From positions 1 through 17,621 of the forward strand of contig DLMI01000123.1 in assembly GCA_002478145.1 (NCBI GenBank): a DNA stretch of 17,621 bases. The letters are read 5' to 3'. A program made the translations under genes and the position numbers. Within the stretch, counting starts at the first letter, position 1, and every line of letters starts with the position of its first letter. Positions 8,587-11,381 of the stretch are shown piece by piece. This stretch comes from Acidobacteria bacterium UBA7540. Its GTDB lineage: Bacteria > Acidobacteriota > Terriglobia > UBA7540. The notes beneath the pieces were generated by a model that saw only the letters and a program-made list of their open reading frames with translations, did not search any database and had not been told where the DNA came from.

Positions 8587-11381
8587 CGGAAATTCTTGAT
8601 CAACACCGCGTCGGTCTGCTCAGTGCCGCGCGAGAGGGCCAGGCGGCCATCGCGGGACCAGTCGAACCAGAAAACCTTGTCTGAAGTGAAATGCGTCACC
8701 GGCTTCGGCGGGCCGCCCGCCACCGGTTGTTCCCAGACGTTCTCCACGCCATTCACGTCGTAGAGGTAAGAGATGGCGTGGCCATCGGGGGTCCAAGAAA
8801 AGTACCCGTGACCAGCACCCGGCAGCGGGAAAACCTTGGCGGGTTGGCCGCCCGCGAAAGGAACCATCGCCAAGCTGAATCGCTGATCCTGGCTGGGAGC
8901 GTACAGGCAGGCAATCCACTTGCCGTCCGGGGAGACGGATGGCGTGTTTGATGCGTAGTCCGTCAACTGGGACGCTGGGCCGCCTCCACTCGGAACCTTC
9001 ATCAGAACAACCTTGCCGCTCTCGGTCCGGCTGAAAACTACCCACCGCCCATCCGGCGATATGGCGGGAAACGCTCCACGGGTGAGCTGTTTCAGATTAC
9101 TACCGTCCATATCCATACGCCAGATGTTGCCCTGGCCATTTCGGTCTTCCTGGTAGAAGGCAATGAAGCCGCCACGGAGGGGGACGGCGGGCAAGGCGGA
9201 AGCTGCGGATGCGTCGTTGTTGGTGAGCCGCTGGGAGTTCGAGCCGTCCGCGCCCATCTTCCAAAGATCATAGCGTCCGTTATGAACCGAGGAATAGACG
9301 ATTTTCCCGTCCGGCGTCCAGGCCAGACCCCCCTGGCCGTCGTGGCTCTGGTTCTCGGCGCTCAACGAGCGGGCCTCGGACTCCTTGCCAGGTGTGGTGA
9401 CCTGGATGGTAGTAAGAACCTGGCCCTGCAGGGCCAGCAGTGTCTTTCCGTCCGCGCTCGCCCGAACTCCTATGTACCTCGACAGGTCGTGAGTGATCTG
9501 GCGGGCTTCGCCTCCCTCTACCGGGACTTCGTAAAGCTGTGATGTCGCGGTGGACCCCGACGCCCCTTGCGGCCTGCCCGCAACGAGCAGGTGAGGGCCT
9601 CCAGGGAGCCAGGTGAGATCCAAGATGGCGTTCCAATGTGCGCCAGCCACCGGCTGGGCCGGACCGCCTTCCGCCGCGATGGTGGTCAAAACCGACTGCC
9701 GGCTATAGTGATCGAAGGCGAGGGTCTTGCCGTCCGGAGACCACGCGACGTGGTAAATCCGCTCGGGCCATTTGTAGGATGCCATTACTCGCTCGTCAGA
9801 GCCATCCGGCGAGGCGGTCAACAAGCTGTCCTCACCAATAATGGTGGTCCGCACAAAGGCGACCCGCTGGCCATCGGGTGAAAATGCCGGCGGGTCGGTG
9901 ATCCCCGCCAGCATCTTTCTGGGACTTCCGCCCAGGGACGGCACTTGGTAAAGATCGCCGCTAGACTTTAGGCGGTCCTGGCGGACGAAGTAGACGTAGC
10001 TGCCATCGGGAGAGAACGCCACACCGGCGCAAATATCTTCGCCCAGGGTGGCAATCTGGACGTCACTGTCCGTGGCCAGTTGCTTCAGCCAGAGGCTTTG
10101 CTTTCCTGCCGTCTCCCGCACATAGGCCACATACTTCCCGTCCGGTGAGATGTCCGCCCCCTGGACGTCGCCACTGCCTGTTACACGCGTAAATTCCAAG
10201 CCGGCGGGCGGAGCCGGAGCATGGCTGGCGGCGCGATAGAGGCCATAGATGAGGGCGGCGGCGATCACCATCCCGGCAGCCATCAATGCGCTGATGGCTT
10301 TCTTGTGGCGCTTGACCAAGCCCGCGATAACCTGGGAATCGGAGCTCTCGCTCGTAGCGTCGGCATCTTGCCGGCTCGCTCTCTCGCCGCCCGGCCCAAG
10401 GGCAGGCACAAGGCCTGTCCCTATGTTGCGCCCAACCGCCGGGACGGCGGCGCTACGCCCCGAATCCGTATCACGCTTCAGGCGTTGCAAGTCTGCCCGT
10501 AGGTCGGCCGCGGTCTGGTAGCGAAGCCTGCGGTCTTTCTCCAGCGTCTTGTTGATGATTTCTTCCAGCTTGGGTGAAAGTTCAGGGTTCAGCCGCACCG
10601 GTGGGGTCGGAGCCTGGGTGAGGATGGCCGTGAAAATCATCGCGGATGTGTTGCCCGTGAAGGGCTGCTTGCCCGTCGCCATCTCGTACAGCACCGCGCC
10701 GAAGCTGAACAGGTCGGTACGTGCGTCGAGTTCTTCGCCTCGCGCCTGCTCCGGCGACATGTAGGCGACCGTGCCCAGAACCACGCCGGGGCTGGTGAGA
10801 TGCTCGGGTTCGAGGGAGGCGGTGGGCAGGGCAGAGGCTCCCACGGCTTCCGCTGCCCGCCTGGGCTTTGGCGCCAGCTTGGCCAGTCCGAAATCCAGAA
10901 TCTTCGCCTGCCCACGCGTGGTGACGAAAATATTCGCCGGCTTGATGTCCCGATGGATGATGCCCTTCGAGTGGGCAGTGTCCAGCGCATCGGCAATCTG
11001 AATGGCCAGGTCGAGCAGGGTATCGATTTGTAGGGGCGAACGGCGTTCGCCCTGCTCGGTTGGGCGCGCGCCGCGCGCCCCTACATCCACCAAATGCTTC
11101 AGGGTCTGCCCCTCCAGCAACTCCATAGCGATGAAAGGCTGGCCCTCGTGCTCATCAATGTCGTAGATCGTGCAGATGTTGGGATGATTGAGGGCAGAAG
11201 CCGCGCGCGCTTCGCGCTTGAGCCTCTCCAGGGCCTCATAATCCTTTGCCAATTCCTCGGGCAGGAACTTGAGCGCCACCAAGCGGCCGAGCCTGGTGTC
11301 CTTGGCCTCGTAGACTACGCCCATGCCGCCGCCACCGAGCTTCTCCAGAACGCGATAGTGGGAAACGCTCTTGCCAGTCAT
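8583..11381 (-). CDS. Receptor-like Ser/Thr protein kinase with C-terminal beta-propeller sensor (932 aa)
   Basis: Hanks-type kinase domain at about residues 8-275: GGGGMG loop, VALK lysine (K38), HRD (143-145) with KPAN, DFG (163-165), and MSPEQARG in place of APE. A basic linker and one membrane segment follow (about 365-388, AISALMAAGMVIAAALIYGL). The rest is an extracytoplasmic series of PD40/TolB-like blades (repeated ISPDGKYVAYV, FSPDGSYVYFV, WSPDGKTLAFD and WTPDG motifs). It presumably transmits a periplasmic signal to cytoplasmic Ser/Thr phosphorylation; the ligand is unknown. I chose ATG 11381 over GTG 11402 because the latter lies against the -10 box and only the former is conserved in the left paralog. 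Two palindromic elements are translated within it, residues 100-118 and 309-343. Its stop overlaps the start of a truncated third kinase. Confidence 0.95.
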   Translation of the reverse strand: MTGKSVSHYRVLEKLGGGGMGVVYEAKDTRLGRLVALKFLPEELAKDYEALERLKREARAASALNHPNICTIYDIDEHEGQPFIAMELLEGQTLKHLVDVGARGARPTEQGERRSPLQIDTLLDLAIQIADALDTAHSKGIIHRDIKPANIFVTTRGQAKILDFGLAKLAPKPRRAAEAVGASALPTASLEPEHLTSPGVVLGTVAYMSPEQARGEELDARTDLFSFGAVLYEMATGKQPFTGNTSAMIFTAILTQAPTPPVRLNPELSPKLEEIINKTLEKDRRLRYQTAADLRADLQRLKRDTDSGRSAAVPAVGRNIGTGLVPALGPGGERASRQDADATSESSDSQVIAGLVKRHKKAISALMAAGMVIAAALIYGLYRAASHAPAPPAGLEFTRVTGSGDVQGADISPDGKYVAYVRETAGKQSLWLKQLATDSDVQIATLGEDICAGVAFSPDGSYVYFVRQDRLKSSGDLYQVPSLGGSPRKMLAGITDPPAFSPDGQRVAFVRTTIIGEDSLLTASPDGSDERVMASYKWPERIYHVAWSPDGKTLAFDHYSRQSVLTTIAAEGGPAQPVAGAHWNAILDLTWLPGGPHLLVAGRPQGASGSTATSQLYEVPVEGGEARQITHDLSRYIGVRASADGKTLLALQGQVLTTIQVTTPGKESEARSLSAENQSHDGQGGLAWTPDGKIVYSSVHNGRYDLWKMGADGSNSQRLTNNDASAASALPAVPLRGGFIAFYQEDRNGQGNIWRMDMDGSNLKQLTRGAFPAISPDGRWVVFSRTESGKVVLMKVPSGGGPASQLTDYASNTPSVSPDGKWIACLYAPSQDQRFSLAMVPFAGGQPAKVFPLPGAGHGYFSWTPDGHAISYLYDVNGVENVWEQPVAGGPPKPVTHFTSDKVFWFDWSRDGRLALSRGTEQTDAVLIKNFR
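10353..10457 (-). repeat. 105-bp palindromic element inside the kinase linker
   Basis: Bounded by CGTAGCG and CGCTACG as terminal inverted repeats. Inside are three smaller hairpins (CCGCCGTCCCGGCGG; GGGACAGGC with GCCTGCCC; GCCGGCAAGATGCCG). The length is 35 codons in frame, and it encodes a Gly/Ala/Arg-rich segment (RSAAVPAVGRN, LVPALGPGGERA) between the kinase domain and the membrane helix. Confidence 0.7.
11029..11085 (-). repeat. 57-bp palindromic element inside the kinase catalytic domain
   Basis: TGTAGGGGCG and CGCCCCTACA are 10-bp terminal inverted repeats. Two perfect hairpins lie between them (GGGCGAAC/GTTCGCCC and GGGCGCGC/GCGCGCCC). The length is 19 codons in frame, encoding GARGARPTEQGERRSPL. 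The left paralogous kinase has no such insert at this place. Confidence 0.85.

What the first reader, a model, noticed from the sequence alone, without database searches (positions are those of the whole stretch)
11029..11085. Palindromic element translated in frame inside a kinase catalytic domain
The 57-bp element has 10-bp terminal inverted repeats and two perfect internal hairpins. It is exactly 19 codons and open in the kinase frame. It lies between the hinge region and the helix before HRD. The paralog at 1-389 lacks it, so a with/without comparison is available in the same window. This resembles protein-coding palindromic elements (RPEs of Rickettsia), which I know of from other phyla. 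All kinase motifs are intact, so the enzyme may tolerate a surface loop.
Basis: partly seen in the sequence, partly recalled or inferred. Interest (0 to 1): 0.75.

Follow-up and report, generated by a model that had tools for sequence, protein, structure and literature searches.

The report
Mobile DNA hairpin inside kinase gene
A soil bacterium's protein kinase gene holds a small DNA hairpin of a mobile kind that is read in frame as a loop on the enzyme's surface, and related kinases carry different hairpins of this kind at the same spot.

Summary
Window 11029-11085 is an inverted pair of GTAG-headed hairpins, read in frame as kinase residues 106-125. It is not a Rickettsia-type RPE but a REP dimer of the GTAG superfamily, the kind tied to RAYT (TnpA_REP) transposases. 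The window's own genome is not held, so its copy number there is untested.

In 13 genomes of one related Acidobacteriota order this dimer type occurs 61 times (reversed-pattern control 1); 15 of the 61 lie in kinase genes. Matching RAYT genes are flanked by these REPs, and 10 of 12 intact ones carry them in frame themselves, a trait published for TnpA_REP subclass 2.4.

New here: the kinase alphaD-alphaE loop is a hotspot. Of 133 loops, 63 have inserts, several REP types among them, and all 63 are multiples of three. MnmG shows the like at one loop (10 of 30 loci).

The window's with/without pair is not a clean insertion: the paralogs are 90-98% alike in most windows but 45% at the loop, while a kinase of another genome matches the loop at 94%. 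Recombination between kinases is implied.

Most likely a tolerated passenger in a disordered loop; an effect on activity is untested.

The parts
11029..11085 (.). REP dimer (REPIN-like inverted pair of GTAG-headed hairpins), translated in frame on the minus strand
11030..11052 (+). first REP: GTAG head plus GGGCGAAC/GTTCGCCC stem, 3-nt loop
11053..11061 (.). 9-nt spacer between the two REPs
11062..11084 (-). second REP: GTAG head plus GGGCGCGC/GCGCGCCC stem, 3-nt loop
   Evidence: a 21-nt stretch identical to it overlaps the 5' end of a RAYT fragment in L432
8583..11402 (-). Ser/Thr protein kinase with a C-terminal PD40/WD40-like propeller, 939 aa, host gene of the element (residues 106-125)
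11073..11102 (-). helix alphaD (residues 101-110); its last residues are already coded by the element
   Evidence: AlphaFold model
10968..11027 (-). helix alphaE (residues 126-145) behind the insert
   Evidence: AlphaFold model
3..416 (-). paralogous kinase, cut by the window end, native loop without the element

Best explanation
The element is a dimer of GTAG-superfamily REP hairpins, of the kind tied to RAYT (TnpA_REP) transposases. Shown: its anatomy, its frame, its place in a low-confidence surface loop between helices alphaD and alphaE, the same dimer type in many copies in related genomes, and RAYT genes flanked by it there. Inferred: RAYT-driven copies land widely, and selection keeps those that leave the reading frame open in a tolerant loop. 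Loops then pass between paralogous kinases by recombination, so this copy probably reached this gene inside a loop cassette rather than by a fresh insertion. The translated peptide is most likely a tolerated passenger. An effect on kinase activity is neither shown nor excluded.
For: GTAG heads, 8-bp stems, inverted pair. Pattern GTAGGGGCN(15-45)GCCCCTAC: 61 places in 13 related genomes, 11 of 13 with at least one, reversed control 1. 15 of the 61 are in kinase genes. RAYT genes with GTAGGGGC REPs on both sides (L391/L422 and others); of 5 RAYTs scanned, 4 pass the cut-off of NCBIfam's REP-associated tyrosine transposase and the GTAGGGGC-type L391 matches below it (48 of 80 bits). 63 of 133 kinase loops carry inserts, 63 of 63 a multiple of 3; mean fold z -2.5 for these 63 (36 under -2) and -0.1 for the 70 native (5 under -2). 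pLDDT under 50 at 113-118 in the loop. Kinase domain under purifying selection: dN/dS 0.17 to L096, dS 1.15. Cassette: identity to L096 is 95-97% at codons 91-120 and 47-60% at codons 281-320; identity to the window's paralog is 90-98% in most windows but 45% at codons 111-130.
Against: The window's own genome and its RAYT are not available. No transposition was observed. The boundaries in kinases are nucleotide-exact over several REP types, which tolerance alone does not predict. 26 of the 64 insert-bearing rows of the tree were left as 'other', without a clear REP type, and 3 are another repeat. The window's own REP subtype was seen beside a RAYT only once, overlapping the end of a fragment at a contig edge (L432). 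54 of 86 RAYT loci lack GTAG REPs within 300 nt on both sides.
Confidence: 0.85

Rival explanations
1. The insert is functional: a kinase insert that changes activity, partner choice or localisation, as the kinase insert domain does in some receptor tyrosine kinases (recalled), kept by selection.
For: Same position between alphaD and alphaE. Inserts recur at this position in many kinases (63 of 133). Kinase domain under purifying selection.
Against: Inserts at this site differ widely in sequence and length (15-96 nt net), and 27 of 63 do not fold better than z -2. Such elements also sit in MnmG, YidC and other unrelated proteins. 70 of 133 loops do without.
Confidence: 0.1
2. A protein-coding palindromic element of the Rickettsia RPE family.
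For: In frame, palindromic, about 20 residues, in a loop.
Against: GTAG head, not the CGTC tag reported for RPEs (PMC3733652); matching RAYT genes and GTAG REPs in relatives.
Confidence: 0.02
3. A hairpin that acts on the mRNA (pausing, attenuation, processing) and is translated only because it lies in a gene.
For: Very stable fold on both strands.
Against: No Rfam match at gathering score. Kinase-loop copies range from perfect to decayed and 70 of 133 loops have none.
Confidence: 0.04
4. Direct site-specific insertion by RAYT into this loop, repeated many times, rather than exchange of loops between kinases.
For: The 5' end is 15 nt after the TL codon in 22 of 28 recognised heads and the 3' end 14 nt before the segment end in 30 of 31, over REP types A, B and C. 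Presence changes at least 24 times and type at least 42 times on the tree with branches under 80 collapsed.
Against: In MnmG the offsets differ between REP types. Native loops show no shared strict motif: 19 of 70 have GCCSCT. The window's own case looks like a segment swap.
Confidence: 0.2

Closest known systems
Intragenic GTAG REP dimers (Di Nocera et al. 2013, PMC3733652)
   Same: GTAG head, short stem-loop, inverted dimer, inside a known protein, 20-30 residues; different REPs at about the same site of recB in X. campestris and X. oryzae are described there.
   Different: Here in Acidobacteriota, in a kinase loop and an MnmG loop that carry several REP types; kinases are not among the gene groups named in the sections seen (its Additional file 3 was not seen).
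REPs of TnpA_REP subclass 2.4 and double-foot REPs (Quentin et al. 2018, PMC6006769)
   Same: Stem base of three G-C pairs, GTAG foot, double-foot minis (for example in L176, L354), REPs inside the cognate transposase gene between HuH and Tyr motifs without breaking the frame.
   Different: Host genes here are cellular kinases and MnmG; section 13 mentions REPs in unrelated genes only in general.
REPIN (Bertels and Rainey 2011, PMC3116915, passages seen)
   Same: Two inverted REPs with a spacer, predicted to form one long hairpin.
   Different: REPINs were defined in extragenic space; this one is translated.
Rickettsia palindromic elements (RPE)
   Same: In-frame palindrome tolerated in proteins.
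   Different: CGTC-tagged by PMC3733652; no transposase link is given in its Table 1 for CGTC repeats.
Kinase insert domain of class III/V receptor tyrosine kinases (recalled)
   Same: Position between alphaD and alphaE.
   Different: No sequence kinship tested; this is a bacterial Ser/Thr kinase closest to PknB in the PDB by sequence.

Membership tests
GTAG-superfamily REP | GTAG tetranucleotide at the foot of a stem-loop (stem 5-13 bp, loop 2-20 nt) | tested here: met
   both halves: GTAG, 8-bp stem, 3-nt loop; definition from Table 1 of PMC3733652
GTAG-superfamily REP | many copies in the host genome | not testable with these tools
   own genome not held; in relatives 61 dimers in 13 genomes, 2 of 13 with none
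GTAG-superfamily REP | RAYT gene with matching REPs in the genome | not testable with these tools
   own genome not held; in relatives 32 of 86 RAYT loci have GTAG REPs within 300 nt on both sides, of GTAGGGGC type for example at L391/L422, L424, L426-L428
REPIN | two inverted REPs with spacer folding into one hairpin | tested here: met
REPIN | lies in extragenic space | tested here: not met
   inside the kinase ORF, residues 106-125
REP of TnpA_REP subclass 2.4 | stem base of three consecutive G-C pairs | tested here: met
   GGG/CCC in both halves (definition from PMC6006769 section 13)
REP of TnpA_REP subclass 2.4 | cognate transposase carries REPs in frame between HuH and Tyr motifs | tested here: inconclusive
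   in relatives 10 of 12 intact ORFs do (15 loci examined, 3 not intact); not testable in the window's genome
Rickettsia RPE | CGTC tag at one end | tested here: not met
   ends are TGTAG/CTACA
Kinase insert domain | insert between alphaD and alphaE | tested here: met
   helices 101-110 and 126-145 in the model
Kinase insert domain | regulatory role | not tested
   needs an activity assay

The most novel reading that the evidence does not exclude
Resident translated REPs are rewritten in place by the host's own REP population, so that exposed loops of kinases and MnmG are continually recoded by a mobile-element system. Support: in MnmG the subtype of the GTAGGGGC-type REP follows the subtype most common in that host in 5 of 5 genomes (2 of 120 permutations do as well; labels set by hand, and for one genome the MnmG copy is itself among those counted). 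Inserted elements match their own genome's subtypes more than permuted ones do (33 elements, 10 genomes: 0.41 against 0.17, 10 of 2000 reach it). Against: hairpins were counted on both strands, so they are not independent, and in some genomes, for example G043 and G018, the kinase copies are not of the commonest type.
Probability: 0.2. Interest if true: 0.75.

Novelty: new member of a known kind. Interest (0 to 1): 0.5.

Why it matters
Translated REPs were known as scattered cases. Here one loop of one protein family gives dozens of natural replicates, in frame, with several REP types and native sisters, and a mostly single-copy gene (mnmG) as a second series. That makes it possible to measure how mobile hairpins become protein sequence, whether in-frame survivors are neutral, and whether REP populations rewrite themselves in place. 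The kinase case also parallels the place where some animal receptor kinases carry their insert domain (recalled).

Tried and rejected
Rickettsia RPE: rejected by the GTAG head. Chance hairpin: rejected. Assembly artefact: unlikely (P0001). A strict DNA target motif in the native loop: not found, GCCSCT in 19 of 70. Frame-breaking kinase inserts: none among the 63. Ten further loci (L313-L321 and L086) were scanned for kinase motifs; L321 is an intact kinase, L313 and L086 show a kinase start without the HRD stretch (a large gap), and the rest are contig ends or show too little, so they do not test the point. RAYT families of other REP types (L156, L143, L149, L160) as cognates of the window type: set aside, the REPs beside them differ or are absent. 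Phylum-wide RAYT search: not completed. Strict phase lock (GTA codon): holds in 13 of 14 dimers tested in ORFs with Pfam matches but not for the two C-type REPs in mnmG L355 and L357, so not claimed as a rule. Length of GTAG..CTAC is 3n+1 in 12 of these 14 against 17 of the other 40 dimers (counted by eye).

Biases: the 133 loops come from the listed best matches to a query that bears the insert (more matches not listed), so 63 of 133 is not a population frequency. Three further loops without a recognised upstream anchor (L204, L216, L256) are not in the 133; L216 reads like a REP insert. One duplicate row was dropped before the tree. REP typing was by short motifs. The tree carries weak signal for presence: 34 changes against a mean of 44.3 and a minimum of 33 for shuffled labels; with branches under 80 collapsed 24 against 35.7. 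The RAYT protein set was drawn with words of a REP-bearing query. The counts for mnmG and for same subtype inside and beside RAYTs were made by eye.

Full report
WHAT IS THERE. Window 11029-11085 is a 57-nt inverted pair of hairpins, each a GTAG head followed by an 8-bp stem with a 3-nt loop, 9 nt apart. The two strands fold at -44.2 and -43.3 kcal/mol, z -5.6 and -6.2, with 0 of 200 shuffles as stable. It lies in the minus-strand gene 8583-11402, a 939-aa Ser/Thr kinase with a PD40 propeller, in frame, touching codons 106-125. VALK, HRD and DFG are present. In the AlphaFold model (77 sequences, mean pLDDT 83) helix alphaD is 101-110, alphaE 126-145, and 113-118 has pLDDT under 50, so the insert is read as a disordered surface loop. 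The closest solved structures by sequence are PknB.

WHICH ORGANISMS. The window's genome is not held. Several of the best protein homologues are named Terriglobia (Acidobacteriota).

HOMOLOGUES. Of the 120 best homologues, 69 have the native loop, 50 an insert, 1 lacks the anchors; 11 inserts are of the window's GARGARP type.

KINASE LOOP HOTSPOT. In 133 kinase loops read from these genomes, 70 have the native spacing and 63 carry 15-96 extra nt; all 63 extras are multiples of three although anchors were sought in all frames. Mean fold z is -2.5 for the 63 and -0.1 for the 70. By short motifs 18 of the 63 are of the GTAGGGGC type, 6 GTAGGGGAG, 10 GTAGCG, 3 another repeat, 26 other (window row left out). 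The 5' end lies 15 nt after the TL codon in 22 of 28 recognised heads and the 3' end 14 nt before the segment end in 30 of 31. On a kinase tree built without the loop (133 rows incl. the window), presence changes at least 34 times and type at least 49; with branches under 80 collapsed 24 and 42, under 90 collapsed 9 and 26, under 95 collapsed 2 and 10. Shuffled labels give a mean of 44.3 presence changes (minimum 33) on the full tree. So the number of independent events is uncertain, but more than one REP type at one site is plain.

GENOME-WIDE. The pattern GTAGGGGCN(15-45)GCCCCTAC occurs 61 times in 13 genomes (0-19 each, 11 of 13 with any; reversed pattern 1). 15 of 61 are in kinase genes: 8 in the alphaD-alphaE loop, 3 in the activation segment (L268 by translation; two in G043 by their place in the kinase match), 3 in the linker and 1 in the N-lobe by place relative to the Pkinase match. 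With 372 kinase matches in these genomes (summed by hand) at an assumed 2.8 kb in 71 Mb about 0.9 would be expected; with all 765 first-look candidates about 1.8. Others lie in MnmG, YidC, DpnI-like and Type ISP genes.

MNMG AS A SECOND SERIES. This gene was found in 38 of 40 genomes, in a few twice or in pieces. In 10 of 30 loci read, one loop carries REPs of types A, B or C in frame. Offsets differ between types, so there the insertions are not nucleotide-exact.

TRANSPOSASES. PF01797 is found in 35 of 40 genomes. Of 86 distinct RAYT loci, 32 have GTAG REPs within 300 nt on both sides. A RAYT with GTAGGGGC REPs on both sides (L391) led to matches in 18 of 40 genomes. Of 15 loci examined, 12 have an intact ORF, and 10 of these carry GTAG REP sequence (two of them a half only) in frame between the HuH and Tyr motifs, 2 do not; by eye, REPs inside and beside the gene are of the same subtype. 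In L432 a 21-nt stretch identical to a window half-REP overlaps the 5' end of a RAYT fragment. The internal REP trait was published for TnpA_REP subclass 2.4 (PMC6006769, section 13 read), so it is not new, but it points to the window's element type.

HOW THIS COPY GOT HERE. The window's paralog (3-416, 138 codons) is 90-98% identical to the kinase in most 20-codon windows (78% at the first), yet 45% at codons 111-130 and 70% at 121-140, so codons beside the element differ as well. A kinase of another genome (L096) is 47-88% identical in windows outside codons 91-130 but 95-97% at codons 91-120, and 94% over the 84-nt loop segment against 72% over flanks. Hence the loop has another history than the rest of the gene: either the loop was exchanged as a cassette, or the paralogs were homogenised around two different loops. 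Either way recombination between kinases is implied, and exact boundaries may be shared by descent.

FUNCTION. dN/dS against L096 over 280 codons without the element is 0.17 (dS 1.15), so the kinase is under selection. The inserts themselves are diverse and often decayed. I take the peptide as a tolerated passenger; this is inference.

LITERATURE. PMC3733652 (section 15, part 1 of section 17 and passages seen): intragenic GTAG and CGTC REPs in several phyla, loops as a possible reason for tolerance, different REPs at about the same recB site. PMC6006769 (section 13 and passages): subclass 2.4. PMC3116915 and PMC2817692: passages only. PMC8266576: listing only. Searches listed no paper that by title or abstract describes this kinase hotspot; the library holds only open-licence papers and supplements were not read.

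Noticed in passing
L391 959-1672 and L422-L443: RAYT transposases of the GTAGGGGC type carry REP sequence, translated, between the HuH and Tyr motifs (10 of 12 intact ORFs); among 106 of 120 homologues with both anchors the loop is 46-117 aa and in many reads like REP translation.
   Followed up: partly
L352-L381 (mnmG): A single loop of MnmG carries GTAG REPs of different types in 10 of 30 loci, in frame.
   Followed up: partly
window 8506-8586: An 81-nt copy of a kinase 5' end (80% to 309-389) at the stop of the kinase gene; it may be the start or a remnant of a further kinase.
   Followed up: no
window 391-756 against 1967-2330, 7993-8042, 11382-11620: Stretches upstream of the kinase starts recur several times in the window at 61-96% identity, as if kinase genes with flanks had been duplicated.
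   Followed up: no
window 15923-15966: A tandem repeat with 12-nt spacing inside a zinc-ribbon gene (15345-16412, minus strand) encodes a VQVQVQ run in frame.
   Followed up: no
window 11890-14903: PadR regulator overlapping a MacB/FtsX-type permease gene.
   Followed up: no
window kinase residues about 173-210 and 317-369: Two more low-confidence stretches, in the activation segment and the linker, where relatives also vary in length; some relatives carry REPs there.
   Followed up: partly
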